The notes beneath the pieces were generated by a model. It searched no databases, was not told the origin of the DNA, and saw only the letters and a list, made by a program, of their open reading frames with translations. Shown piece by piece: positions 8,867 to 48,475 of a stretch of DNA of 64,000 nt. Source of the stretch: Rhizobium sp. EC-SD404 (lineage in GTDB: Bacteria; Pseudomonadota; Alphaproteobacteria; Rhizobiales; Rhizobiaceae); assembly GCF_902498825.1 (NCBI RefSeq), contig NZ_LR701459.1, forward strand, positions 186,001 to 250,000, read 5' to 3'. How positions within the stretch are numbered: the stretch's first letter is position 1; every line of letters starts with the position of its first letter. The position numbers and the translations under genes are program-made.

Positions 8867-8890
8867 GCTTCCCATATCGGAAGCGACTTC

Positions 8891-8951
8891 GAGTAATTTG
8901 TCGCGTTTCCGAACGGTGAACCGGTACCCACTTCACCTGGAAGCGCTCTAG
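8891..8951 (-). repeat. intergenic repeat, copy A (internally deleted)
   Basis: Left-end sequence GAGTAATTT (8891-8899) is joined directly to the right half TGTCGCGTTTCCGAACGG...GAAGCGCTCTAG, so about 45 bases of the full unit are missing. Its right end shares CTAGAG with the left end of copy B, making a tandem pair between trpA and accD. Confidence 0.8.
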
Positions 8952-9053
8952 AGCAGTTTCGCGTTTCTTCGAATCGCTCAACGGCTCTAAGTTTTTGATT
9001 TGTCGCGTTTCCGACGGTGAACCGGTATCCACTTCACCTGGAAGCGCTCTAGA
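8947..9053 (-). repeat. intergenic repeat, copy B (full length)
   Basis: A full ~107-bp unit with inverted termini TCTAGAGC/GCTCTAGA. Inside are the conserved blocks TCGCGTTTCTTCGAATCGCTCA, split by a short variable stretch, and GTCGCGTTTCCGA-CGGTGAACCGG-ATCCACTTCACCTGGAA. The other copies lie at 34709, 41356 and 45629. It resembles known rhizobial mosaic intergenic elements (RIME-like); that name is an inference. Confidence 0.85.
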
Positions 9054-34708: not shown

Positions 34709-34813
34709 CTAGAGTAATTTCGCTTTTCTTCGAAACGCTCAATCACTCTCAGTTTTTCGTTTGTCGCGTTTCCGAACGGTGAACCGGCATCCATTTCACC
34801 TGGAAACGCTCTA
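34709..34813 (-). repeat. intergenic repeat, copy C
   Basis: A full unit from CTAGAG (34709) to GCTCTA (34808-34813), with TTTCGCTTTTCTTCGAAACG in the left half and GTCGCGTTTCCGAACGG and CACCTGGAAACG in the right half. It lies inside the his cluster between hisF and hisE. Its right end supplies the TAG stop codon of hisF (minus strand). Confidence 0.88.
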
Positions 34814-35587
34814 ATCGAGCCGCACCGCGATACCGGCGGCAGCCATGTGGCGCTTGGCTTCGTCGATGGTAAATGTACCGAAGTGAAAGATCGAGGCGGC
34901 GAGCACCGCCGTTGCATGGCCATCGCGGATCCCTTCGACCAGATGGTCGAGCGTTCCCACCCCGCCAGACGCAATGACGGGCGCGCGCACGGCGTCGGCA
35001 ATGCTTCGGGTCAACGCGATATCGAAGCCGCTCTTGGTGCCATCCCGGTCCATCGAGGTCAGGAGCAGTTCACCAGCGCCGCGATCCACCATGTCGATGG
35101 CAAACTCGATCGCGTCAATGCCGGTTTCCTTGCGCCCGCCATGGGTGAAGATCTCCCAGCGCGCATCCTCGCCAGGACCCGAAACCCTCTTGGCGTCGAT
35201 TGCGACGACGATGCACTGATTGCCGAACTTGTCGGCCGCTTCATTGACGAAGGCGCGGTTGTTCACTGCGGCCGTGTTGATCGAGACCTTGTCGGCGCCA
35301 GCCAGCAGCAATTTGCGGATATCGGCGACCGTGCGGACCCCGCCACCGACCGTCAGCGGCATGAAACACTGTTCAGCCGTGCGGGCGACGACGTCGAAGA
35401 TCGTCTCGCGGTTGTCGGACGAAGCGGTGATATCGAGGAAGCAAAGTTCGTCGGCACCCGCGGCATCATAAGCCTTCGCCGCCTCGACCGGATCACCCGC
35501 ATCGATCAGATCGACGAAATTGATGCCTTTGACGACACGGCCGTCCTTCACATCCAGGCAAGGAATGACGCGAGACTTGAGGCTCAT
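34811..35587 (-). CDS. hisF: imidazole glycerol phosphate synthase, cyclase subunit
   Basis: HisF joins with HisH to convert PRFAR and ammonia to imidazole glycerol phosphate and AICAR. The 258-residue barrel has [12 protein letters not shown] with the catalytic Asp, LTVGGGVRT, the C-terminal phosphate loop [12 protein letters not shown], and a second catalytic Asp in [10 protein letters not shown]. The start overlaps the hisA stop by four bases. The stop codon TAG lies in the terminal bases of repeat copy C. Confidence 0.98.
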
Positions 35588-36327
35588 TTGCCGGATTCCT
35601 TAGCCGACTTGAGAACATCGAGGGCTTCGGCCGGATCGAGGCGGCCATCGTAGAGCGCCCGTCCAGTGATCGCGCCTTCGAGCCTAACCGCATCCGGCAT
35701 CGTCATGCGCACGACATCGGCGATGGAGGCGAGGCCGCCGGATGCGATGACGGGAATGGAGACCGCATCGGCCAATTCCAGCGTGCTGTCCCAGTTGATG
35801 CCCGTGAGGATGCCGTCCCGGTCGATGTCGGTGTAGATGATCGCCGCAACGCCGGCGCCTTCGAACTTGCGGGCGAGCTCGATCACGCCGAGCTCCGAGG
35901 CTTCCGCCCAGCCTTCAACGGCAACCTTGCCGCCCTTGGCATCGATTCCGACGGCGATCTTGCCGGGGAATCGCTTGCAGGCTTCGATGACCAGCGCGGG
36001 ATCACGCACGGCAACGGTGCCCAGGATGACGCGGGCGAGCCCCTTGTCCAGCCAGGCGTCAATCTGCTCGATCGTGCGAATGCCGCCGCCGAGCTGCACC
36101 GGATTGTCGGTCGCCTCGAGAATGGCTTCCACTGCCGCGCCATTGACGCTCGATCCGGCGAAAGCGCCGTCGAGGTCGACCACATGCAGCCACTCGAAGC
36201 CCTGATCCTGGAATGCCCGGGCCTGTGCGGCCGGGTCGGTGTTGTAGACGGTCGCCTGCGCCATATCGCCAAGCTTCAAACGCACGCACTGACCCTCTTT
36301 CAGGTCGATGGCTGGAAAAAGGATCAT
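35584..36327 (-). CDS. hisA: ProFAR isomerase
   Basis: HisA isomerises ProFAR to PRFAR. The 247-residue protein begins [18 protein letters not shown] with the catalytic Asp, has [22 protein letters not shown] and [13 protein letters not shown]. The ATG at 36327 overlaps the hisH stop as ATGA; the ATG at 36336 would be three codons longer and is less likely. Confidence 0.98.
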
Positions 36328-36974
36328 GGGGCCCAACGCAGAAAATTGGCGATGAGAGCGAGACCGAGGGTCTGGCTCTTCTCGGGGTGGAACTGGGTTC
36401 CGGCACGGTTGTCGCGCGCGACGATCGCGGTCATCGCGCCACCGTAGTCGGTGGTTGCGACGACATCTTCCGGACGGCTGGCGGCAAGGTGATAGGAATG
36501 CACGAAATAGGCGTGCAGCCCGTCGCGCCCGGTCGGGATGCCGTTCAAAAGCGGGTGATCGCCGCGCTGGTCGATGGTGTTCCAGCCGATCTGCGGAATT
36601 TTCAGTGCCGGATCGCCTGGACTCATCTCGACGACGTCACCGGCGATCCAGTCGAGACCATGGGTTACGGTCTTTTCGAGCCCGCGCGTCGACATGAGCT
36701 GCATGCCGACGCAGATGCCGAGGAATGGCCGTCCGCTGGTAACGACGACTTCGTCCAGTGCCTCGCGCATGCCGTCGACAGCGGCGAGACCGGCGGCGCA
36801 ATCAGCATAAGCGCCGACACCTGGCAGCACCACGCGGTCTGAGCGCCGGACCATTTCAGGATCGGCCGTCAGATGGATTTCAGCGGCAAGTCCGGCCTCA
36901 CGGGCTGCACGCTCGAAAGCCTTCGTGGCCGAACGGAGATTGCCGGAGCCATAATCGATGATCGCGACCTGCAT
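36324..36974 (-). CDS. hisH: imidazole glycerol phosphate synthase, glutamine amidotransferase subunit
   Basis: HisH supplies ammonia from glutamine to HisF. The 216-residue class-I amidotransferase has the nucleophile loop [11 protein letters not shown], and the His-Glu pair in [13 protein letters not shown]. It starts [15 protein letters not shown] at 36974, two bases after the DUF2628 stop; an ATG seven codons upstream is not needed. Confidence 0.98.
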
Positions 36975-36976
36975 GG

Positions 36977-37474
36977 TCAGCGCACTCCATTCCATTCAAA
37001 CATGCCGAAGCTTTCCGCGGGCCTTTGAAAGCCAGTTTTCGCGCCGTCGGACCGCATCTCATTCACATCACGCACATCCGGTTCAACGGTGCCGTCGACG
37101 GAACCGGTCGCAGCGTGCCTGGTGAAGAACACTTCCTCGGCCTCGTCGAGTGAGAACGCGTCGACCAGCGCTTCCATCCTCCAGCCGCGTGCTTCCAGCT
37201 TTGCTGTCCGCAGGCGGTTACCCTCGAGACCAGCGTAGAGCGATGTCGCGACCGAAAACGCAAAACCGGTTGCGAAGGTATCGCCCGTCGCCATCAGCCA
37301 GTTGGTGACGGCGGCGACGAGAAAAAAGGCCCCTGTCCAAAGCCACATGCGGTGCCAGAGGAACCAGAAGACCGGGAAGATGAAGGCGAGCGGCGCAAAG
37401 CCATCGCGAATGAAGCGCGTCTCGATCCCGTCCGGGTCGCCGCCTGGCGGCGTCATCACCACGAAGGTTTTCAT
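36977..37474 (-). CDS. DUF2628 membrane protein
   Basis: A 165-residue protein with two close hydrophobic segments ([20 protein letters not shown] and the following [14 protein letters not shown]) in the pattern of DUF2628. Its function is unknown. The position between hisB and hisH recurs in many rhizobia, so co-expression with histidine genes is likely even though no enzymatic link is visible. The start is ATG 37474 ([12 protein letters not shown]). Confidence 0.85.
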
Positions 37475-37508
37475 TCGGTCATCTCTCTTCGTCCGAGCGG
37501 TCGTCCGC

Positions 37509-38129
37509 TCAGACGAGAATGCCCTTGGTGGACGGAATGCGATCGGCAGCGCGCGGGTCGATCTCCATCGCGGACCGCAGCACGCGCGCAACCGCCTTGA
37601 AGCAAGTCTCCGCGATATGGTGGCTGTTGGCACCCGCAAGATTGGTGACGTGCAGCGTGATGCCTGCATGCTGGCTAAACGCCTGAAAGAACTCGCGCAC
37701 CAGCTCGGTGTCGAAGCTGCCGATCTTTTCGGTCGGGAACGTGACGTTCCAGACGAGAAACGGGCGGCCGGAGACATCGATCGCAGCGCGGGTGAGAGCT
37801 TCGTCCATGGCGAGATCGAGCGAGGCGTAGCGGGTGATGCCCTTGCGGTCGCCGAGCGCCTTGGAAAAAGCCTGGCCGAGCGTGATGCCGGTATCCTCGA
37901 CGGTGTGGTGATCGTCGATGTGCAGATCGCCCTTAGCACGCACCTCGATATCGCTCATCGAATGGCGCGCAAGCTGGTCCAGCATATGGTCGAAGAATCC
38001 GACGCCGGTCTCCATCGAGGCCCGTCCGGTGCCGTCGATGGCGACACTCACCGAGATGTCGGTTTCGTTTGTCTTGCGCGAGATGCTGGCGCTGCGCCGC
38101 TCGTTCTCGCCCCTGTCCTTCGATGCCAT
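37509..38129 (-). CDS. hisB: imidazoleglycerol-phosphate dehydratase
   Basis: HisB dehydrates imidazole glycerol phosphate to imidazole acetol phosphate using two Mn ions. The 206-residue monofunctional form has [13 protein letters not shown], the metal motif [10 protein letters not shown] and the second [14 protein letters not shown]. The ATG at 38129 has GGAG seven bases upstream. It is the first gene of the minus-strand his run and is divergent from hslV. Confidence 0.97.
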
Positions 38130-38326
38130 GCTCAAGCTCCGCCGGGAATATCGGCGCTGCATATCAGGCCACTTGTAAAGAATCCAGAACAGCCGGGCTT
38201 CCCGGCCGCCAATTGCAAAGGCTTTGGCGCTTCTTACATAAGCTCTCGAATTCCATTGGCGGCTTACGGCCGATGATCTCCGGACCAGTCGAGCCTATTC
38301 TCCCGACGTTCAAGGACTGAATTTTC

Positions 38327-38887
38327 ATGAGCGAGCACGATCCCTACGGCACCATGCATGCAACCACGATCATTACGGTTCGCAAGGGCGGACAGGTGGT
38401 CATGGCCGGCGACGGCCAGGTCAGCCTCGGCCAGACCGTCATGAAGGGCAACGCACGCAAGGTGCGCCGGCTCGGAAAAGGCGACGTCATCGCTGGCTTC
38501 GCAGGCGCGACCGCCGATGCGTTCACTCTTCTGGAGCGGCTTGAAGCGAAGCTCGAGCAGTATCCGGACCAGCTGATGCGCGCCGCAGTCGAGCTTGCCA
38601 AGGATTGGCGCACCGACCGTTACCTGCGCCGGCTGGAGGCGATGATGCTGGTCGCCGACAAGTCGGTCACCTTGGCGATCACCGGCAATGGCGATGTGCT
38701 CGAGCCCGAGCACGGCACGATCGCGATCGGATCCGGCGGCAACTACGCTTTTGCAGCGGCACGAGCGCTGATGGACACCGACCTTGGCGCCGAAGAGATC
38801 GCGCGCAAGGCGATGGGCATCGCTGCCGATATCTGCGTCTACACCAATGGCAACGTGGTGGTGGAGCTTCTGGACGACGCGGCCTGA
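38327..38887 (+). CDS. hslV: ATP-dependent protease subunit HslV
   Basis: The threonine peptidase of the HslVU (ClpQY) protease. The 186-residue protein has the mature N-terminus at Thr13 in [13 protein letters not shown] (the propeptide is removed), followed by [10 protein letters not shown] and later [16 protein letters not shown]. It degrades misfolded and regulatory proteins together with HslU. The 197-base gap to the divergent hisB should hold the promoter. I could not confirm a heat-shock promoter there. Confidence 0.98.
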
Positions 38888-38943
38888 GATTTCTCGGCCG
38901 CTCGCTTCGCCCCACGCATTGCACAGCACAGGACATACCCTCA

Positions 38944-40248
38944 ATGACCGTTTTTTCTCCGCGCGAGATCGTTTCCGAGCTCGACCGGTTCATCATCGGA
39001 CAGAACGATGCGAAGCGCGCCGTCGCCATCGCGCTGCGTAACCGCTGGCGCCGCCAGCAGCTCGACGAGAGCCTGCGCGACGAGGTGATGCCGAAGAACA
39101 TCCTGATGATCGGACCGACCGGCGTCGGCAAGACCGAGATTTCACGCCGCCTGGCAAAGCTCGCCGGCGCACCGTTCATCAAGGTTGAAGCGACGAAATT
39201 TACCGAGGTCGGCTATGTCGGCCGCGACGTCGAACAGATCATCCGCGATCTGGTCGAGGTCGGCATCGGCCTTGGACGCGAGCGCAAGCGCCAGGAGGTC
39301 AAGGCAAAGGCCCATCTTTCGGCCGAGGATCGGGTTCTCGACGCACTCGTCGGATCGACGGCTTCGCCCGCGACGCGCGATTCCTTCCGCAAGAAACTGC
39401 GTGAAGGTACGCTCGACGAGAAGGAAATCGAAATCGAGGTGGCCGACACCGGGTCGGGCATGCCGCTCGATATTCCCGGAATGCCCGGCGCCAATATCGG
39501 CGTGCTCAACCTTTCCGACATGCTCGGCAAGGCCATGGGCAAGCGCACGAAAAAGATCAAGACGACCGTCAAGCAGTCCTACCAGCAGCTGATCGAAGAC
39601 GAGGCCGACAAGCTTATCGACGACGAGCAGATCGCCCGCGAAGCCGTCCGGGCCGTCGAGAATGACGGCATCGTTTTCCTCGACGAGATCGACAAGATCG
39701 CCGCCAAGAACGGCGGAATGGGCGCGGGCGTTTCGCGCGAAGGCGTACAGCGCGACCTTCTTCCGTTGGTCGAAGGTACGACCGTCGCCACCAAGTACGG
39801 GCCGGTCAAGACCGACCACGTGCTCTTCATCGCGTCCGGCGCCTTCCATGTTTCGAAGCCCTCCGACCTGCTGCCGGAACTCCAGGGACGCCTGCCGATC
39901 CGCGTCGAGCTGCAGGCGCTGACGAAGGAAGATTTTCGCCGCATCCTGACGGAAACCGAAGCGAGCCTCATCAAGCAATATGTCGCGCTCATGGGCACGG
40001 AGCAGGTCGAACTGACGTTCACGGACGACGCCATCGATGCACTCGCAGGCGTTGCCGTCGATCTCAACGCCAGCGTCGAGAACATCGGCGCCCGGCGGCT
40101 GCAGACGGTGATGGAACGCGTGCTCGATACGATCTCGTTCGAGGCGCCCGACCAGTCCGGTGCGACCTATGTGATCGACGCCGAATATGTCCGCAAGCAT
40201 GTGGGCGATCTGGCGAAGAACACGGACCTGTCGCGCTACGTCCTCTAG
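38944..40248 (+). CDS. hslU: ATP-dependent protease ATPase subunit HslU
   Basis: The AAA+ unfoldase partner of HslV. The 434-residue protein has [22 protein letters not shown], Walker [13 protein letters not shown] (about 55-66), the pore motif VGYVGRDVE, Walker [12 protein letters not shown], and an intact I-domain. The start ATG at 38944 lies 56 bases after hslV. A long hairpin follows the stop. Confidence 0.98.
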
Positions 40249-40274
40249 GGGCCGACAGGCCATTGTGGCGATTT

Positions 40275-40308
40275 GGCACCGCGTGGATACTTTCGTTCAC
40301 GCGGTGCC
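40275..40308 (+). terminator. hairpin after hslU
   Basis: A perfect 11-bp stem GGCACCGCGTG/CACGCGGTGCC with a 12-nt loop lies 26 bases after the stop. The sequence after it (CTATTCC) is not a good T-tract, so it may be a 3' stabilising hairpin rather than a strong terminator. Confidence 0.6.
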
Positions 40309-40385
40309 CTATTCCATGCCTATCTGTCTCGACATCGAGGATGGCTGATCGCTATGCATCGCCTATTCTATGAGGGCTGAAAGCG

Positions 40386-41351
40386 ATGATTCCCGGCGGC
40401 TGGACACGTGTCTTCTGCTTGACGGTGGGGCTTCTTGTTGCTGCGCTTCCTGCGCATGCGGCCGGACGTCCGGTGCCTGAAGGAAACCGCTTCGCCGAAC
40501 AGCCGGCTGTGCCTGGCGCATCGAGCCGCCGGACATCCGGGCTCAACACCACGTTCGAAGCAAAATACAGACGGATCTACGATCTGCTCGCCTCGGACGA
40601 AGGGCTTCGCACGAAGATCCGTTCGGCAGGCCGTGCCTATGGCATCGACCCTATCCACATCGTCGGCGCGCTGGTCGGCGAGCATACCTACAATGTCGAC
40701 GCCTATGACCGGCTCCAGTCCTATTACGTGAAGGCCGTCGCCTATGCCGGCGAGCGCTTCTCCTTCGGCCACGATGGCGAAAACGTGCTCGCCTTCGTCG
40801 CCCGAGAGCCTTTCGCGCATTGCGCTGAACTGACCGGCTCCTATGCGCTCTGGTCCTGCCGTGAACGCGTCTGGGACAACGTCTTTCGCGGTCGCACGGT
40901 GGATGGCACGCGATACCCGAACGATCGGTTCTCGGCCGTGTTCTTCCAGCCGTTCTTTGCAGGCCAGACTTTCGGTCTCGGGCAGATCAATCCCCTGACA
41001 GCGCTGAAAATGTCGGATCGCGTCAACAAGGTCTCGGGCCATCCGAAGCTTCAGGCAGACGACCCGATCGGGGTCTACCAGGCGATCATGGATCCGGACC
41101 GGTCGCTGGCCTACATGGCGGCGATTCTCGCCTCGTCGATCGAGGTCTACGGCCGCGTTGCGAATTTCGACATTTCCACCAATCCCGGCATCACGGCCAC
41201 GCTCTATAATGTCGGCGATCCCGATCTTCGCGCGGCGGTCCTCGCCCGTCGTAACGGTGGCGGGGGCCGGCATCTGCCGGAAGAAAACTATTACGGCTGG
41301 CTGGTCAACGATCGTCTCGAGGAACTGCGCACCCTCTTCCCGGAAAGCTGA
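40386..41351 (+). CDS. DUF1402 exported protein
   Basis: A 321-residue protein with a clear signal peptide (VFCLTVGLLVAALPAHA, cleavage near residue 26) and a mature domain of the rhizobial DUF1402 family. The stretch FGLGQINPLTALKMSDRV resembles lytic transglycosylase folds (the GLGQI element), so a periplasmic muramidase-like role is possible, but no family member is characterised that I know of. The start ATG at 40386 follows hslU by 137 bases. Repeat copy D begins five bases after the stop. Confidence 0.85.
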   Translation: MIPGGWTRVFCLTVGLLVAALPAHAAGRPVPEGNRFAEQPAVPGASSRRTSGLNTTFEAKYRRIYDLLASDEGLRTKIRSAGRAYGIDPIHIVGALVGEHTYNVDAYDRLQSYYVKAVAYAGERFSFGHDGENVLAFVAREPFAHCAELTGSYALWSCRERVWDNVFRGRTVDGTRYPNDRFSAVFFQPFFAGQTFGLGQINPLTALKMSDRVNKVSGHPKLQADDPIGVYQAIMDPDRSLAYMAAILASSIEVYGRVANFDISTNPGITATLYNVGDPDLRAAVLARRNGGGGRHLPEENYYGWLVNDRLEELRTLFPES

Positions 41352-41355
41352 GCAC

Positions 41356-41454
41356 CTAGAGCAATTTCGCTTTTTGCGAATCGCTCCGATTCCTCTGAGT
41401 TTTTGCCGCTTTCCGAACGGTGAACCGGTTTTCGCTTCACATGGAAACGCTTTA
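41356..41454 (-). repeat. intergenic repeat, copy D
   Basis: The unit runs from CTAGAGC (41356) to GCTTTA (41449-41454), between convergent DUF1402 and HTH genes. The left half is shorter than in B or C, and the right half reads GCCGCTTTCCGAACGG... GGAAACGCTTTA. The end gives the TAA stop codon of the minus-strand HTH gene. Confidence 0.82.
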
Positions 41455-41811
41455 TGGCTCCACCTGATCAAGCAGCGCGCTCAAGGTGGCCAGTTCCTTT
41501 TCGTTCATCTGCGGCAGCAAATGCGCCAGACGGTTTGCGATCTCGGTCTTTTGCTGCGACAAACCACTCGTTTCGAGCTTGATCTTCGGGTCCGACAGAT
41601 AGGCGAGGCGCTGCAGTTCTTCGGCCTCGTCCCAGATGATGTTGAAGTAGCCGATGACCTTCTGCACGAATTCCCAGCTGGGGCGGCCACGGTGACCGTG
41701 TTCCAACGCCGACAGATAGGCGGGAGAGACGCCGATCGCTTCAGCCATCGCACGCTGCGTGATGCAGCGTTCGGTGCGCATCCGCCGCATGGCAGCGCCG
41801 AACGGCGTCAT
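41452..41811 (-). CDS. small XRE-family helix-turn-helix regulator
   Basis: A 119-residue protein. The HTH lies at about residues 13-60: ITQRAMAEAIGVSPAYLSALEHGHRGRPSWEFV, followed by a helical C-terminus. Targets are unknown. The start overlaps the smr stop by four bases, so it is coupled to smr and mltA. The stop codon TAA is in the terminal bases of repeat copy D. Confidence 0.88.
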   Translation of the reverse strand: MTPFGAAMRRMRTERCITQRAMAEAIGVSPAYLSALEHGHRGRPSWEFVQKVIGYFNIIWDEAEELQRLAYLSDPKIKLETSGLSQQKTEIANRLAHLLPQMNEKELATLSALLDQVEP

Positions 41812-42401
41812 GGCGCGGACCTGCGCTTCTTCAGGCGCAGATAGATCGCCCCCTCGCCGCCATGGCCACGCGCGGCCTGTTTGTAGCCGGACACATAGGG
41901 CCTGAAATCCGACTGCGTCAGCCAGTGGGGCACGGCACGCTTTAGGGCACCTTCGCTGCCGAACGACGCGCCCTTGCCGGTGATGACGAGGACGTGGCGC
42001 AGGTCATCCAGATAGGCCCGGCTGAGAAAGCCGAGCAGACGACCGTGCGCCGCCGATTGATCGAGCCCGTGCAGGTCGATCGTAGCGTCGATCGGCAACC
42101 GTCCGCGCGCGATCTTTCGATGCACGGGACGCTCGATCGGGTGCAGCGAAGCGGCTGGCTGTTTCGCCTTGCGGGTCTCGTCGATCGGTGATTCGCGGAA
42201 CGACGCGGCGAGTGCCTTGCGCATGCCTTCCGTCACCTTGGCAGGCTGAGGCGGTTGCGCATTGGGCGCGGGCGTCTTCGGCGCAAGATCGGCGCTGCTG
42301 CCGAGCAGGGTCTCCATGCGACCCGGCATAGGACGCGCGGTCTTCGCTACCTTGTTCCACAGCGCGTTCTCGCCGCGCGTCAGCTTGCGTCCCTTGCTCA
42401 T
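41808..42401 (-). CDS. Smr domain protein
   Basis: A 197-residue protein with a disordered, Pro/Ala-rich N-terminus and a C-terminal Smr domain: IDLHGLDQSAAHGRLLGFL, VLVITGKGASFGSEGALKRAVPHWL and GGEGAIYLRLKK. Stand-alone Smr proteins are small nucleases or ribosome-collision factors, but the role in alphaproteobacteria is not settled. It overlaps the mltA stop and the HTH start by four bases each. Confidence 0.9.
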   Translation of the reverse strand: MSKGRKLTRGENALWNKVAKTARPMPGRMETLLGSSADLAPKTPAPNAQPPQPAKVTEGMRKALAASFRESPIDETRKAKQPAASLHPIERPVHRKIARGRLPIDATIDLHGLDQSAAHGRLLGFLSRAYLDDLRHVLVITGKGASFGSEGALKRAVPHWLTQSDFRPYVSGYKQAARGHGGEGAIYLRLKKRRSAP

Positions 42402-43498
42402 AGGCCGAGCCTCGCCACGGCCGGGCGCGGGACGAGGACGTGGAATGTTGCGGAGTGCTTGATGCTTCCCGCCTCACCACCGGCAGAAGCACCAGAGCCC
42501 GTGAAGATGTCGGCGCGCGCAGGTCCGATGATGGCCGAACCCGTGTCCTGCCCGATCATCAATCGACAGAAGGGCTTGGGCCCGTTCACATGGGCCAGGC
42601 TTCGGGCTTCGATGAAGAAAGGCGTGCCGAACGTATGGGTCTCCCGATCCACGGCGATCGACCGACCCGCCGTCAAAGGCACCTTGGCGGCGCCGATCGG
42701 GCCACGCATCGGGTCGATCTCGGGATCTTCCCGGAAGAAGATGAACGACCGGTTCTGCCAGAGGATTTCATCCAGGCGCTCGGGGTTCTCCGCCAAGCAC
42801 TGCCGGATCGTATCCATCGTCACCGACCGGGCCTCGATCTCGCCAAGGTCGATCAGGACGCGGCCGATCGCCGTGAACGGATGGCCTGACTTGCCGTCGA
42901 AGGTGATCCGCGTGACCGACCCATCAGGCTCGATGAGCCGTGCCGAGCCCTGTATATGCGTGAAAAAGACGTCGACGCGGGAACGCGCCCAAGCGATTTC
43001 GAGATTCCTGCCCGCCAACGCGCCGCGTTCGATCGATCCACGATCGGCAAATTCATTTAGACCTTCCGGACCCTGCTTCGCCCACGTGATGCCGGCTGAC
43101 TGAAGATCAGGCGCCTCGCCGGCTTCGAGCTGACGCAGTTCGGAGGGGCGCCTCAGAAAGGGAAAACGGTACTGCGCGTCAGGCGTGCGCGAAACCTCGA
43201 CCTCGGGCTCGTAATAGCCGGTCAGGAACCCGCTGTTCTCGTCGCCAATCCGGCAGGGCACAAAGTGTTGCTCAAAGAAGCGGCGCGGCTCATCCACATC
43301 GTCGGAGAGATGATCGAGTGATGCAATTGCCGGCCTAAAATCTGCGGCATCGATGCCGAGCGTTCCGGTCCGGTAAGGCTTTTCAGAGATCTGCAGATGG
43401 AGAGCGCTCGCTCGAAATGCCGAGAGGGCGGCGCGATGATCATCGGCCGCCCACCCTGCGATATCCTCGAAACGGGCCGGATGAAGCACCGCCGGCAT
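42398..43498 (-). CDS. mltA: murein transglycosylase A
   Basis: MltA cleaves peptidoglycan to 1,6-anhydro-muropeptides. The 366-residue protein has GFLTGYYEPEVEVSRT, AWARSRVDVFFTHIQGSARL, and the 3D-domain GTPFFIEARS and LMIGQDTGSAIIGPARADIFTGSG, which carry the catalytic aspartates. The start ATG at 43498 (MPAVLHPARFEDIAG) has no signal peptide or lipobox, and neither does the upstream extension, which is unusual for a periplasmic enzyme. It follows the Tim44-like gene by seven bases. Confidence 0.92.
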   Translation of the reverse strand: MPAVLHPARFEDIAGWAADDHRAALSAFRASALHLQISEKPYRTGTLGIDAADFRPAIASLDHLSDDVDEPRRFFEQHFVPCRIGDENSGFLTGYYEPEVEVSRTPDAQYRFPFLRRPSELRQLEAGEAPDLQSAGITWAKQGPEGLNEFADRGSIERGALAGRNLEIAWARSRVDVFFTHIQGSARLIEPDGSVTRITFDGKSGHPFTAIGRVLIDLGEIEARSVTMDTIRQCLAENPERLDEILWQNRSFIFFREDPEIDPMRGPIGAAKVPLTAGRSIAVDRETHTFGTPFFIEARSLAHVNGPKPFCRLMIGQDTGSAIIGPARADIFTGSGASAGGEAGSIKHSATFHVLVPRPAVARLGL

Positions 43499-43505
43499 GG
43501 CGCCG

Positions 43506-44216
43506 TCAGGCGTCAGCTTCGGTGGCGATGAGCTTCCAGTTGGGGTCGCGCGACCGCGTGTCACGGGCAAAGGTCCAGACATCATTGACCTCACCGACGC
43601 TCTCGGCGTCACCGTCGACGACCTTGCCATCCTTGTCATGGGTCACGGAAATGAGCTGGCTGACAAGGCGCAGGGTCACCGCCGACTCCGATCCCTTCAG
43701 TTCCGCCTGAACGATCTCAGCCTTTTCGACGCCGACGAAGGACGATTTCACCGTCTCGCCGCGCGATTCGCGCTCGTTGATCGCTGCGACGAAGCCTTCA
43801 TAAACTTCTCGGGACAAAAGATTCTTGAGCGTCTTGCGATCGCCGTCGGCAAATGCCGCCACGATCATTTCATAAGCGATCTTGGCGCCTTCGACGAACT
43901 GCTTGGGGTTGAAGGCAGGATCGGCTGCCGCGATCTCACGCAGACCGGCATTCAGGTCCGTGCCGGGCTTTGCATAGGCATCCACCGCTTCGAAGCCGCC
44001 TTCCGGGCGCGGGCTGTCGCGACGGGGCAGGCTGACGACCTTGCCATCGTCTGCGATGTCCGTGCCAACGGGCGCCTTGGCGCCTTCGCGCTTTGCATAC
44101 GGATCGAATGGCTGGCGCTCATTGCCCGTTCGACGGCCGAGCACACTGCGCAGCTGCAGAAATATGATGACTGCCGCCACGAAAAAGAAAAATGTCACGA
44201 AATCAAAGGAGCCCAT
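43506..44216 (-). CDS. Tim44/TimA-like inner-membrane protein
   Basis: A 236-residue protein with an N-terminal membrane anchor MGSFDFVTFFFFVAAVIIFLQL and a C-terminal Tim44-like domain (about 90-236), with FVEGAKIAYEMIVAAFADGDRKTL and VSQLISVTHDKDGKVVDGD. Bacterial relatives are membrane-associated and linked by inference to protein translocation or envelope maintenance. The ATG at 44216 is used, since an ATG 13 codons upstream adds a non-hydrophobic stretch. It is divergent from fxsA. Confidence 0.9.
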   Translation of the reverse strand: MGSFDFVTFFFFVAAVIIFLQLRSVLGRRTGNERQPFDPYAKREGAKAPVGTDIADDGKVVSLPRRDSPRPEGGFEAVDAYAKPGTDLNAGLREIAAADPAFNPKQFVEGAKIAYEMIVAAFADGDRKTLKNLLSREVYEGFVAAINERESRGETVKSSFVGVEKAEIVQAELKGSESAVTLRLVSQLISVTHDKDGKVVDGDAESVGEVNDVWTFARDTRSRDPNWKLIATEADA

Positions 44217-44405
44217 TGCGCCTGCTGCCGATCGGTGTGTGCCTGCCGACCCCATATAAGGCCCAAGCGGGGATCATTCAAACTCCGTACATTCAAATTG
44301 CGACATGGGGCCACCATATTGGGGCCGATTGTTGCGACGGTCGATGTATGAGGCCTGTCGAAACGGTAGTGTATCGGTGTCCACTCAAGGATCAATGGCT
44401 GTCAC

Positions 44406-44954
44406 ATGGCGTTTTCTCTCGTGCCTTTCATGCTTTTGGCCATGCCGATCGCGGAAATCTCCATGTTCATCCTCGTCGGGAGCCAGATCGGGCTTTTGCC
44501 GACGCTTGGACTGATCCTGGTCACCGCGATCATCGGGTCCGTTCTGCTGCGCGTCCAGGGCTTCGGCATCGTGCGCCGTATTTCGGAAGAGGCGCGGGCT
44601 GGTCGCGTTCCGGGGCGCGAGCTCATTCACGGCGTGATGATCGTCGTTGCCGGCATTCTCCTGCTGACACCCGGCTTCATCAGCGACACGATCGGCTTCC
44701 TGCTGTTCATTCCAGCCGTGCGGGATCTCGGCTGGCGTCTCGTCAAGGATCGGATCGTCGTCGTCGGAGCGGGCATGGCTGCCGGCATGCGGGGGCAAGC
44801 AACGCAGCCGGGCGAAGGGCCCCGGCCCCATGCCGGTCAGCCGCGCGGCCGCACCGTCATCGATCTCGACGAGGACGACTACAGCCGGGAGCCGTCGGCG
44901 GATTCGCCATGGCGGGACGACACGAACGGTCGTGGCGGCCCTAAAAGCCACTGA
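44406..44954 (+). CDS. fxsA: FxsA family membrane protein
   Basis: A 182-residue protein with four predicted membrane segments in the first 125 residues (LVPFMLLAMPIAEISMFIL, LLPTLGLILVTAIIGSVLL, GVMIVVAGILLLTPGFISD, IGFLLFIPAVRDLG) and a hydrophilic tail. FxsA was named from suppression of F-plasmid exclusion of phage T7; its cellular role is not known. The LLLTPGFISDTIGFLLFIP pattern is diagnostic. The upstream gap (44217-44405) is a divergent promoter region. Confidence 0.9.
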   Translation: MAFSLVPFMLLAMPIAEISMFILVGSQIGLLPTLGLILVTAIIGSVLLRVQGFGIVRRISEEARAGRVPGRELIHGVMIVVAGILLLTPGFISDTIGFLLFIPAVRDLGWRLVKDRIVVVGAGMAAGMRGQATQPGEGPRPHAGQPRGRTVIDLDEDDYSREPSADSPWRDDTNGRGGPKSH

Positions 44955-45054
44955 TTGTGCGCTTTGAGTTGTCACCCGGCGGTTGAAGTGGTAGCCACGC
45001 CGGGATTTTTGAGGGCTGCCGTCGGGCAGTTCGACGGACAAACGGGGAAGAACG

Positions 45055-45579
45055 ATGGCCGAGGAAACAAAGAATTCCGAAGGATCCGCAGCACCAGCGG
45101 CAGCCGACAAGGCAAATGGCGCGACGCCGACCTTGAACGTGGTTTCGCAGTACATGAAGGACCTGTCCTTCGAAAACCCATCCGCGCCCCGCAATGCGGG
45201 CCAGCGCGGCAAGGCGCCGGCCATCAACATCAACGTCAACGTCAACGCCAATCCGCTTTCGGAAACCGAGTATGACGTCGTCCTGACGCTCAACGCGACG
45301 GCCAAGGATGGCGAGACCGTCGTCTTCAATGCCGAGCTTGTGTATGGCGGCATCTTCCGGCTGCAGGGCTTTGCCAAGGAGCACATGCTGCCGCTGCTCT
45401 TCATCGAGTGCCCGCGCATGCTGTTCCCGTTTGCCCGCCAGATCATTGCGGACGCAACGCGCAACGGCGGCTTCCCGCCGCTGATGATCGACCCGATCGA
45501 TTTCGCACAGATGTTCCAGCAGCGCATGGCCGCCGAGCGGACCCGCGCCGCGAGCGCGCCGGCACCTCAGGTCAACTGA
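45055..45579 (+). CDS. secB: protein-export chaperone SecB
   Basis: SecB holds preproteins unfolded and hands them to SecA. The 174-residue alphaproteobacterial form shows [27 protein letters not shown] and [32 protein letters not shown]. It acts in the cytoplasm as a tetramer. It is preceded by GGGGAAG and followed by a strong hairpin and repeat copy E. Confidence 0.98.
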
Positions 45580-45593
45580 CCGAAACCATGACC

Positions 45594-45626
45594 AGCTTTC
45601 CCCGACCGGCCTGATCGGGGAAAGCT
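45594..45626 (+). terminator. hairpin terminator after secB
   Basis: A perfect 12-bp stem AGCTTTCCCCGA/TCGGGGAAAGCT with a 9-nt loop, followed by TTCAG. It lies 14 bases after the secB stop and abuts repeat copy E. The T-tract is short. Confidence 0.75.
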
Positions 45627-45628
45627 TT

Positions 45629-45732
45629 CAGAGTCATTCGCGCTTCTTCGAACCGCTCAACGACTCTCTGTTTTTTGGTTGGTCGCGTTCCGAACGGTCC
45701 ACCGGTTTCCACTTCATCTGGAAACGCTCTAG
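45629..45732 (-). repeat. intergenic repeat, copy E
   Basis: The unit runs from CAGAGTC (45629) to GCTCTAG (45726-45732) between convergent secB and dnaQ. It shares GCGCTTCTTCGAACCGCTCAA, broken by short differences, and GTCGCGTTCCGAACGGTCCACC with copies B and C. The end provides the TAG stop codon of dnaQ. Confidence 0.86.
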
Positions 45733-46424
45733 CGCAAAACGCGCCACAACGCGTTCTTGCCAAGTCGCTCGACCAGGCGTGCATGCGCGGCCTGCTCGAA
45801 TTCCGTCAGGCGTGGCGGCAGCGGGCGCTCGCGCACCATGACGGAGATGTCGATCTCGACCGATCTCCCTCCACCATTGCTTCCGAACTCGACTTCCAGA
45901 CCAAGCGCTGTCTGACGGCCGCCGATCATCTCGATATAGACTTCGGCCAGCAGTTCCGCGTCGAGCAGTGCCCCGTGCTTGGTGCGGTGGCCATTGTCGA
46001 TGTTGTAGCGACGGCAAAGCGCATCCAGCGAGTTCGGGCCCATCGGATGCCGTCGGCGCGCGAGCACCAGCGTATCAAGGATCTGTTCGCGCCCGATGGG
46101 ACCGATACCGATGCGCTCGAATTCGGCATTGATGAAGCTGATATCGAATGTAGCGTTGTGGGCGATCAGCGTCGCATCGCCGAAGAATTCCTGCAATTCG
46201 CCGGCGATCTGAGCGAAAGTCGGCTTATCCGCCAGAAACTCATCGGTGATCCCATGCACCTGCAGCGCATCCGGATGCACCGGACGCCCCTGCGCATTGA
46301 TGTAGACGTGGAAGCTCCGGCCTGTCGGAAAATGGTCGATGAGCTCGAGGCATCCGATCTCGATGATGCGATCGAGCCTGAAATCCAGGCCGGTCGTTTC
46401 CGTATCGAAAATGATCTCGCGCAT
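45729..46424 (-). CDS. dnaQ: DNA polymerase III epsilon subunit (proofreading exonuclease)
   Basis: DnaQ gives the 3'-5' exonuclease of the replicative polymerase. The 231-residue protein has ExoI FDTETTGLD, ExoII HNATFDISFINAEF and ExoIII HGALLDAELLAEVY. The start ATG at 46424 (MREIIFDTETTG) is used; an ATG four codons upstream is possible. It lies 19 bases after coaE, and its TAG stop comes from repeat copy E. Confidence 0.96.
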   Translation of the reverse strand: MREIIFDTETTGLDFRLDRIIEIGCLELIDHFPTGRSFHVYINAQGRPVHPDALQVHGITDEFLADKPTFAQIAGELQEFFGDATLIAHNATFDISFINAEFERIGIGPIGREQILDTLVLARRRHPMGPNSLDALCRRYNIDNGHRTKHGALLDAELLAEVYIEMIGGRQTALGLEVEFGSNGGGRSVEIDISVMVRERPLPPRLTEFEQAAHARLVERLGKNALWRVLR

Positions 46425-46443
46425 CACGCTCTCCACCCGCGTC

Positions 46444-47037
46444 TCATGCGGGTTGTCCAGTCAGTTCAAGGATAATGGCCTCGACCCGCTGCTCCGTCGC
46501 GGCCAGGCCTTCGCCGGTCTCGATGATGAAGTCGGCGCGGGCGCGCTTTTCGGCATCGGGCACTTGCCGCGCAAGGATAGAGGCCAATTTCTCCTGCGTC
46601 ATGCCGGGCCTGGCCAGGACGCGCGCCTTTTGCACATCTTCCGGACAGGACACCACGGCAATGCGATCGACATCGGCATCGCCGCCGCTTTCGAAGAGCA
46701 GCGGCACATCGAGAAGCACGAGGGGCTGGCCACTGGCTTTCTGCTCGGCGAGGAAGAGATCCCGCTCGCGGCGCACCAGCGGATGGACGATCGCCTCCAG
46801 TTTCTGGAGCGCTTCGCGGTTGCCGAGAACCTTTTGCGCCAACGCGACGCGGTCGATGGTGCCCTTGGCGGTCGTCGTGCCCGGGAAAGCGGCTTCCAGC
46901 ATCGGCACGGCTTGGCCGGCATAAAGCTCGTGAACGACCGCATCGGAATCGAACACCGGCACGCCGCGGGCGGCGAACATCGCGGCCGTCGTCGACTTAC
47001 CCATACCGATGGATCCCGTCAGACCCAGCTTGATCAA
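46444..47037 (-). CDS. coaE: dephospho-CoA kinase
   Basis: CoaE phosphorylates dephospho-CoA in the last step of CoA synthesis. The 197-residue protein has the P-loop LGLTGSIGMGKSTTAAMF and the downstream VFDSDAVVHELYA and LLDVPLLFESGGDADVD. It overlaps the aroE stop by four bases (ATGA), within the maf-aroE-coaE-dnaQ run. Confidence 0.97.
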   Translation of the reverse strand: MIKLGLTGSIGMGKSTTAAMFAARGVPVFDSDAVVHELYAGQAVPMLEAAFPGTTTAKGTIDRVALAQKVLGNREALQKLEAIVHPLVRRERDLFLAEQKASGQPLVLLDVPLLFESGGDADVDRIAVVSCPEDVQKARVLARPGMTQEKLASILARQVPDAEKRARADFIIETGEGLAATEQRVEAIILELTGQPA

Positions 47038-47879
47038 TGCTTTGACTCCAGATCGGCGATCACCAGATCACGGACTTCCATGGTTACCTCGGGGCGCAGT
47101 CCAAACCAGCGTTCGAAGCCCGGAACGGCCTGGTGCAGCAGCATGCCAAGCCCATCGACGGTTCGAAGTCCCTGGGCATGCGCCTCTTTCAGAAACGGCG
47201 TCATCAGCGGCGCATAGACGATATCGGTGACCACGGCGCCAGGACGCATGGTGGTGAAGTCGATGGCGGGCACTTCCGAACCATCCAGACCCAAAGCGCT
47301 CGTGTTGACGAAAAAATCCGCGTTGAGGACGAGCGAGGAGAACTTTTCCATCCCGTGGGCGGCTGCTTTGGGACCGAAAAGGCCAGCGATCTCCCCGGCC
47401 CTTTCGACCGTGCGGTTGACGATATCGACCCGATCGAACCCGCGTTCGACCAGCGCGTCGATCACCGCACGGCTTGCGCCGCCGGCGCCGAGAACCACGG
47501 CCCGCTCACCGCGATCCCAACCTGGCGCGCGCTGATCGAGATTTGCGAGGAACCCATAGCCATCCGTGTTCGTGAGATGGAGGCGCCCGTTGACGCACCA
47601 GAGCGTGTTGCCGGCCCCGAGCCGCGCGACGTTCGGATCGATCTCATCGGCGCCACGCATGGCGGCTTCCTTGTGCGGCATCGTCACGTTGCCGCCAACG
47701 AAGCCAGCCTCCCCGCTTCTCAGGCGATCCAGAAATGCGAAGAAATCGTCCGGGGCGATGTCGAGCGCTTCATAGGAACCGGCGATGTCGTGCTTCTTCA
47801 GCCAGTGGCCGTGAATGATCGGTGACCGGGAATGCCCTATCGGGTGCCCCACGACGAAGGCGGCAGGCGGCCTTATCAT
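47034..47879 (-). CDS. aroE: shikimate dehydrogenase
   Basis: AroE reduces 3-dehydroshikimate with NADPH in the shikimate pathway. The 281-residue protein has [13 protein letters not shown] (shikimate binding), [11 protein letters not shown] with the catalytic Lys, the nucleotide-binding [13 protein letters not shown], and [18 protein letters not shown]. It is coupled by four-base overlaps to maf upstream and coaE downstream. Confidence 0.97.
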
Positions 47880-48475
47880 CCGTCGATCGCTCCGACCCGG
47901 CGCAGCTCAGCCAGAAGCGGCAGCAATGGCAGGCCGACGATGGTGAAATAATCGCCGTCGATCTTTTCGAAAAGCTGGATGCCCTTGCCCTCGAGCTGGT
48001 AGGCGCCGACGCTTTTCAACGCGATATCGCCCACCGATGCCAGATGGCGTCCGATGAATCCGGGATCGAGGCTGCGCATCGTCATGGCCGCGGTCGACAT
48101 ATGACGCCACACAGCTTTGCCGTCTCGGGCAAGCACGATCGCGGAATTCAGGGAATGCGTCTTACCGGAAAGCTTCAGCAGATGGCGTCGCGCGCCTTCC
48201 ATGTCCTCGGGCTTGTGGAAGACCTCGTCGTCCAGGGACAATGTCTGATCGGAACCGATGACCCAGGCACCCGGCGAGCGCTGGCTGACATCAACCGCCT
48301 TCGCTACGGCAAGCACCAGCGCGACATCTTCGGGCGTCGCACCGCTGTCGGCGAGCGGGGCCTCCAGCGCGCGCTCATCGACCTCGGCGGGCACGACATC
48401 GAAAGCCACCCCGGCGTTCTGCAGCAACTGTCGGCGAAAGGGGCTCGAAGATGCCAGAATGATGGGTGCAGCCAT
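47876..48475 (-). CDS. Maf-like nucleoside triphosphate pyrophosphatase
   Basis: A 199-residue Maf/YceF-type protein that hydrolyses non-canonical or modified nucleotides to the monophosphate. Motifs are [32 protein letters not shown] and [12 protein letters not shown] (catalytic Asp). In rhizobia and Caulobacter a maf gene lies next to the origin, as here. The exact substrate class (dTTP/UTP or 7-methyl-GTP) cannot be set by eye. Confidence 0.93.

What the first reader, a model, noticed from the sequence alone, without database searches (positions are those of the whole stretch)
34709..45732. A dispersed ~105-bp repeat whose end supplies stop codons of neighbouring genes
Copies C, D and E are all oriented so that the minus-strand reading of their right end is TAG/TAA-AGCGTTTCC. 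In each case the stop codon of the upstream minus-strand gene (hisF TAG 34811-34813, HTH gene TAA 41452-41454, dnaQ TAG 45729-45731) is that TAG or TAA. Three of three single copies abut a reading frame at exactly the same base. This suggests insertion or retention at gene ends that converts the repeat into a stop-plus-3'UTR module, possibly with mRNA-stabilising or terminating hairpins. I know of rhizobial mosaic repeats, but not of a stop-codon-donor habit.
Basis: seen in the sequence. Interest (0 to 1): 0.7.

Follow-up and report, generated by a model that had tools for sequence, protein, structure and literature searches.

The report
Mobile repeat nested in stop codons
A 104-base hitch-hiking DNA repeat, whose ends match those of an IS630-type jumping gene, often sits inside the stop codons of bacterial genes, and because its own ends complete the codon the genes nearly always still stop where they did before.

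Summary
The genome holds 56 detected copies of a 104-bp two-hairpin element. In 21 of 56 a neighbouring gene's TAA/TAG begins exactly at the element's terminal TA: 12 at the right end, 10 at the left, one copy at both. Random non-coding YTAR sites would give 16-21%.

The "stop-codon donor" reading mostly fails. In two congeners the orthologous gene stops at the same codon in 21 of 22 cases, including 12 of 13 where they lack a recognisable element. One gene was trimmed. Empty sites show a duplicated TA. The termini match inverted repeats of IS630-family elements in relatives.

Best explanation: an IS630-mobilised MITE inserting at TA within YTAR. Stop codons are a large share of harmless YTAR sites in GC-rich, gene-dense DNA, and both termini follow TA with a purine, so a TAA/TAG hit is rebuilt. 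The excess over YTAR is probably selective survival (inference). No oriented 3'-UTR role is shown, though one reading direction carries a T run. Identity with RIME1 or Bru-RS was not settled.

The parts
34710..34813 (-). Copy C of the element, full length (104 bp), right end first on the minus strand; the terminal TA at 34812-34813 gives the first two bases of the hisF stop
   Evidence: two hairpins, RNA fold z -4.5 on the minus strand
   Evidence: congeners carry a diverged copy of the element here; same stop position in eight farther genomes without an element in view
41357..41454 (-). Copy D of the element (98 bp, small internal deletions)
41452..41811 (-).
   Evidence: both congeners have TGA at this codon and no element; 0 of 11 farther relatives stop at this codon
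45629..45731 (-). Copy E of the element (103 bp)
   Evidence: both congeners have TAG at this codon followed by a short remnant-like stretch
8889..8950 (-). Copy A, truncated (62 bp), tandem with copy B and sharing one TA with it; not at a stop codon
8949..9051 (-). Copy B, full length (103 bp), between genes I take for trpA and accD (recalled names); not at a stop codon
   Evidence: congeners have a single short copy here

Best explanation
The repeat is a non-autonomous IS630-type miniature element (MITE). It has two palindromic arms and termini TA|GAGCGTTTCC and TA|GAGCAATTTCG. An IS630-family transposase cut and pasted it into TA dinucleotides, preferably in the context YTAR, duplicating the TA. 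A TAA or TAG stop preceded by a pyrimidine is such a site. After insertion the codon reads TA plus the element's first base, a G or A, whichever end faces the gene, so termination is kept at the same codon and the element becomes the start of the 3' untranslated region. Stops are over-represented because YTAR is scarce inside GC-rich coding DNA, and because an insertion in a stop costs the gene little. Shown: stop coincidence, TA duplication at empty sites, conserved stop position in congeners, terminal match to IS630 repeats. Inferred: which transposase moved it, and that selective survival explains the excess over YTAR.
For: Stop coincidence at both ends, 21 of 56 copies. Empty sites: #20 GGT-TA-TTCGAG in G001 against GGT-TA-element-TA-TTCGAG; #43 GGTCTATTAACGCC, where two convergent genes shared TTAA and each now ends on a TAG at an element end; sites whose length is restored when one terminal dinucleotide is removed, judged by eye, at #4, #6, #9, #25, #27. 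Stop at the same codon in 21 of 22 gene ends in both congeners. Target context: C before the right-end TA in 19 of 29, purine after the left-end TA in 20 of 22. IS630-family loci of relatives: L208 TAGAGCGTTTCCC at both ends, L205 TAGAGCGTTTCAC at both ends, L211 TAGAGCGTTTTCC and TAGAGCATTTTCC; 5 of 12 loci have TAGAGC at both ends. Plasmid IS630s: 5 of 7 have TAGAGC at both ends, 4 of those 5 flanked C-TA-G. IS630/ISY100 transposition duplicates TA (PMC2170065, passages). Recurrence: 9 of 18 congener sites (from the 30 best of 74 copies, grouped by eye) and 7 of 10 sites in other Alphaproteobacteria.
Against: No DDE_3 match in either congener and one partial IS630 in the own genome, so no current partner is seen. 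Some element-less relatives carry TGA at the stop (#9, #25, #26, #53 in both, #6 in one), which needs later codon drift or insertion at TG. Terminal dinucleotides are TA in 29 of 56 right ends and 22 of 56 left ends, read as decay and truncation. In G025 4 of the 30 loci examined are at stops (no null computed there). The terminal match to IS630 is about 12 bp. In 7 of 12 IS630 loci I found no pair of TAGAGC ends, though L210 has one such end. YTAR preference alone does not give the full excess. The replicate samples favour intact ends: best-scoring copies, and a pattern that required TAGAGCG.
Confidence: 0.85

Rival explanations
1. Stop-codon donor / 3'-UTR module: the element is inserted or retained at gene ends because it gives the gene its stop codon and a protective or terminating hairpin.
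For: 21 of 56 copies abut a stop exactly; copies C, D and E fold better than most shuffles; copy #7 did shift a stop by two codons; read left end first, a run of four T follows the left arm in 23 of 34 long copies.
Against: Same stop position without the element in 12 of 13 testable gene ends; no preferred end (12 right, 10 left); right end first, a T run follows the right arm in 1 of 34; no terminator pattern at C, D or E.
Confidence: 0.08
2. Pure target-site arithmetic: random insertion at YTAR with no selection gives the stop overlap.
For: Stops are 28 of 131 or 54 of 347 of non-coding YTAR sites, so a large overlap is expected anyway; a narrower preference (CTAG, CTAA or TTAG) would raise it to 24%.
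Against: Observed 21 of 56, 9 of 18 and 7 of 10 exceed those shares (p 0.004 or 5e-5; 7e-4; 7e-5), the last two in samples that favour intact ends.
Confidence: 0.2
3. Mobilised by another TA-duplicating family (for example IS711, which I recall as an IS5-family element) rather than IS630.
For: IS711 is reported to duplicate TA of YTAR and to prefer Bru-RS repeats (PMC2266754, passages).
Against: IS630 elements of relatives share the terminal 12 bp of the right end; IS5-type ends were not examined here.
Confidence: 0.1
4. REP-like element spread by a REP-associated Y1 transposase acting on single strands.
For: Palindromic arms; chromosome-strand bias.
Against: Y1 transposition is not expected to duplicate a TA (recalled); the strand bias does not follow replichores. 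Y1 genes were not searched.
Confidence: 0.04

Closest known systems
IS630/Tc1-mariner insertion sequences and their MITEs (RUP of Streptococcus pneumoniae)
   Same: About 100 bp, termini shared with an IS630 element, insertion at TA; TA duplication for IS630/ISY100 (PMC2229807 and PMC2170065, passages)
   Different: Two arms joined by a linker; frequent landing in stop codons, not mentioned for RUP in the passages I saw
BOX elements of Streptococcus pneumoniae
   Same: 36 of 58 CDSs overlapping BOX have the stop codon inside the repeat, without strong evidence of truncation (PMC3049150, passages)
   Different: Modular boxA/B/C repeat (recalled); sequences not compared; no TA-end rule stated in the passages seen
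RIME1, Rhizobium-specific intergenic mosaic element
   Same: Recalled as about 108 bp with two palindromes in rhizobia; RIMEs are mentioned in PMC2573895 (passages)
   Different: Original paper not held, so identity untested
Bru-RS1/Bru-RS2 of Brucella
   Same: 103-105 bp repeats (PMC2267715, passages); IS711, which targets YTAR, prefers them (PMC2266754, passages)
   Different: Sequence not compared here
CIR repeats of Caulobacter/Brucella
   Same: About 110 bp, two arms and a linker (PMC2229807, passages)
   Different: GANTC in the left-arm loop in only 5 of 22 copies

Membership tests
IS630-derived MITE | Terminal sequences match those of an IS630 element | tested here: met
   Right end TAGAGCGTTTCC equals both ends of L208 and one end of L206 and is close to L205 and L211; left end TAGAGCAATTTCG resembles L167/L170 ends. 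The match is about 12 bp; 7 of 12 IS630 loci gave no TAGAGC pair.
IS630-derived MITE | Insertion at TA with duplication of TA | tested here: met
   Empty sites #20 and #43; length-restoring sites #4, #6, #9, #25, #27 by eye; #24 fits with one base lost at the right end
IS630-derived MITE | Short, non-coding, multicopy | tested here: met
   104 bp, 56 copies at E<=1e-3; no called gene lies wholly inside any of the 56
IS630-derived MITE | Mobilised in trans by the IS630 transposase | not testable with these tools
   Needs a transposition assay; no full partner seen in own genome or congeners
CIR repeat | Two arms with linker, about 110 bp | tested here: met
CIR repeat | Conserved GANTC in an arm loop | tested here: not met
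   5 of 22 in the left-arm loop, 10 of 22 anywhere
RIME1 | Sequence identity with the published element | not testable with these tools
   Paper not held; size and two palindromes agree only with recall
Bru-RS | Sequence identity with Bru-RS1/2 | not tested
   Only the reported size was seen
Stop-codon donor element | Genes lack this stop codon when the element is absent | tested here: not met
   12 of 13 gene ends without a recognisable element keep the stop at the same codon in both congeners; #7 is the exception
Intrinsic terminator | GC-rich stem directly followed by a T run | tested here: inconclusive
   0 found at copies C, D, E on either strand; but a T run follows the left arm, read left end first, in 23 of 34 long copies
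Known RNA family | Match to an Rfam model at gathering score | tested here: not met
   Only a tRNA elsewhere in the window

The most novel reading that the evidence does not exclude
The purine after TA at both termini is an evolved stop-safe design. This lineage of IS630 elements uses stop codons as a niche in gene-dense, GC-rich Alphaproteobacteria: either end rebuilds the stop, so insertions are translationally silent and persist across orders, and the element gradually turns TAA stops into TAG and appends a standard hairpin to many unrelated genes.
Probability: 0.25. Interest if true: 0.65.

Novelty: new member of a known kind. Interest (0 to 1): 0.45.

Why it matters
It explains why a family of repeats ends genes at one exact base while nearly always leaving the proteins unchanged, and it links those repeats to a definite transposon family. 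It gives a simple rule, testable in any genome: a TA-duplicating element whose ends begin with G or A is silent in TAA/TAG stops. It warns annotators that a stop lying inside a repeat does not mean a truncated gene.

Tried and rejected
Rfam: no match for the repeat at gathering score. Own-genome IS630 as the source: one partial copy (L163), no matching terminal pair found, although its 3' flank resembles the left end by eye. Replication-strand bias as a sign of single-strand transposition: skew on the element strand is 27 positive to 29 negative, and the chromosome-strand bias is the same in both replichores, so rejected as an explanation but left open as an oddity. CIR identity: GANTC not conserved. 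Correlation of IS630 number with repeat number over 40 genomes: searched but not computed. Searches scored only 150 first-look candidates per genome and only 99, so weak copies may be missed.

Dropped rows: 3 of 59 R1 matches (E above 1e-3) were left out. #54 right and #29 left, with TGA at position 0, and the variants at +1/+2 (#3, #24, #43 right) were not counted among the 22 gene ends. Congener and other-taxon sites with like flanks were merged by eye. Two Rhizobium albus loci were left out of the 12. In one search, 27 hisF, 18 dnaQ and 14 HTH loci were read, own and congeners included, of the 30, 30 and 30 loci fetched.
Full report
OBSERVATION. A tandem pair at 8889-9051 is not at a stop. 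An alignment of 22 own copies gave 104 columns with two hairpin arms; 5 of 18 predicted pairs have at least one compensatory change. A covariance model built from it found 56 copies at E<=1e-3 in the own genome, 34 and 40 in two congeners, and matches in 23 of 40 genomes of a search that includes these three.

STOP OVERLAP. A codon-usage gene caller trained on 20 window genes was run on the loci of all 56 copies. TAA or TAG starts exactly at the right-end TA in 12 copies and at the left-end TA in 10; one copy has both, so 21 of 56. In my sample of the own genome, elements masked, stops are 55 of 510 non-coding TA and 28 of 131 non-coding YTAR sites. In 400 kb of congener G001 they are 54 of 347 YTAR. 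Binomial p for 21 of 56 is 1.5e-7, 0.004 and 5e-5. Congeners: of the 30 best-scoring of 74 copies, 13 are at a stop, 12 of 22 without an own orthologue; grouping these by flank by eye gives 9 of 18 sites. A scan of named genomes with a right-arm pattern that begins TAGAGCG found 14 stretches, in Rhizobium albus, Parvibaculum, Cucumibacter, a Rhodovibrionaceae bacterium and unnamed Alphaproteobacteria. Of the 12 outside Rhizobium albus, 9 are at a stop; merging two like-flanked pairs gives 7 of 10 sites (4 at the right end, 3 at the left), against 13 of 96 YTAR in those loci. Both replicate samples favour copies with intact ends. The distant genome G025 shows fewer: 4 of the 30 loci examined, out of 73 matches.

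EMPTY SITES. Flanks of 38 own copies were sought in the two congeners and own and congener sites were aligned. At #20 the relative reads GGT-TA-TTCGAG (G001; GTCGAG in G002) where the own genome has the element between two TAs. At #43 two convergent genes shared TTAA; the element now sits in its TA and each gene ends on a TAG at an element end. At #27 the stop TAA is present in both relatives without the element. At #4, #6, #9 and #25 removing one terminal dinucleotide restores the relative's length (by eye). #24 fits only if one base was lost at the right end. A read-out of the 22 gene ends finds the orthologous stop at the same codon in 21 in both congeners; the exception (#7) is two codons longer there. 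By my classification of those rows, 13 of 22 ends have no recognisable element in the relatives (#10 and #11 might hold remnants), and 12 of these 13 keep the stop.

FARTHER RELATIVES. hisF: of 24 loci beyond the genus, 9 stop at the same codon (G004, G005, G011, G013, G014, G015, G026, G027, G034); G013's sequence ends three bases later, the other eight show no element downstream; the remaining 15 end -1 to +6 codons away. dnaQ: 3 of 15 at the same codon, the rest -1 to +6. HTH gene: 0 of 11 at the same codon (-2 to +13). So beyond the genus only hisF gives clear support; the C-termini of the other two are variable. In G010 the HTH gene ends on a TAG beginning a similar-looking sequence, TAGAGCATTTCC (by eye).

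ORIGIN. Of 7 plasmid-borne IS630 loci, 5 (L167, L168, L170, L172, L173) have TAGAGC at both ends; 4 are flanked C-TA-G and L173 T-TA-G. Of 12 IS630 loci from the whole genomes, 5 (L204, L205, L206, L208, L211) have TAGAGC at both ends, L210 at one, and L207, L209, L212-L214 and L163 gave none. L208 reads TAGAGCGTTTCCC at both ends. The element's right end is TAGAGCGTTTCC and its left end TAGAGCAATTTCG. IS630/ISY100 transposition duplicates TA (PMC2170065, passages); its reference list names Tenzen and Ohtsubo 1991 on TA in CTAG (title only). Element flanks show a like preference: C before the right TA in 19 of 29, purine after the left TA in 20 of 22.

WHY STOPS. With TA duplicated and the element starting with G or A from either side, a TAA or TAG that receives it reads TAG or TAA again. 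YTAR is scarce inside genes (84 of 2337 coding TA), so stops make up much of the harmless supply. The remaining excess is 1.8-fold against the own-sample null and 2.4- to 5-fold in the comparisons; I attribute it to selection against insertions elsewhere, which is inference. Hairpin function: right and left ends face genes 12 to 10; scans of C, D and E find no terminator pattern. Read left end first, a run of four T follows the left arm in 23 of 34 long copies, against 1 of 34 after the right arm in the other reading, so termination for genes entering from the left is open.

KNOWN WORK. BOX repeats supply the stop of 36 of 58 overlapping pneumococcal CDSs without strong evidence of truncation (PMC3049150, passages), so stop-bearing repeats have a precedent. 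RUP is proposed to be moved by an IS630 transposase (PMC2229807, passages). RIME1 and Bru-RS may be names of this or sister families, but their sequences were not compared. In the listings of my paper searches (one search returned nothing) I saw no title or abstract start that ties RIME-type repeats to IS630 or to stop codons; only open-licence papers are held.

Noticed in passing
G001 chromosome, coordinates: 49 of 61 element sites (G001 copies plus mapped own sites) lie on one strand of the single-contig congener chromosome, in both replichores alike (p 2e-6; 11 to 3, p 0.057, after collapsing neighbours within 100 kb). I have no mechanism; in the own genome the orientation runs in blocks (runs test z -4.0).
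   Followed up: partly
window 8889-9051: Tandem of a truncated and a full copy sharing one TA; congeners have a single short copy at the spot.
   Followed up: partly
own genome: Several short copies keep both termini but have lost the middle or the left arm (for example #39, #47, #50), like internal-deletion derivatives.
   Followed up: no
L163:1463-2010: A lone partial IS630 transposase; the sequence after its stop (AATTTGCTCT) resembles the element's left end, by eye.
   Followed up: partly
L304 (G010): The orthologous HTH gene in another genus ends on a TAG that begins a related-looking repeat, suggesting independent landing at the same gene end.
   Followed up: no
own genome, copies of 95 nt or more: Left end first, the left arm is followed by a run of at least four T in 23 of 34 copies, a possible one-way terminator.
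   Followed up: partly
window 45729-48427: dnaQ, a coaE-like gene and neighbours resemble the gene order recalled near alphaproteobacterial origins; G001 skew changes sign near the corresponding place.
   Followed up: no
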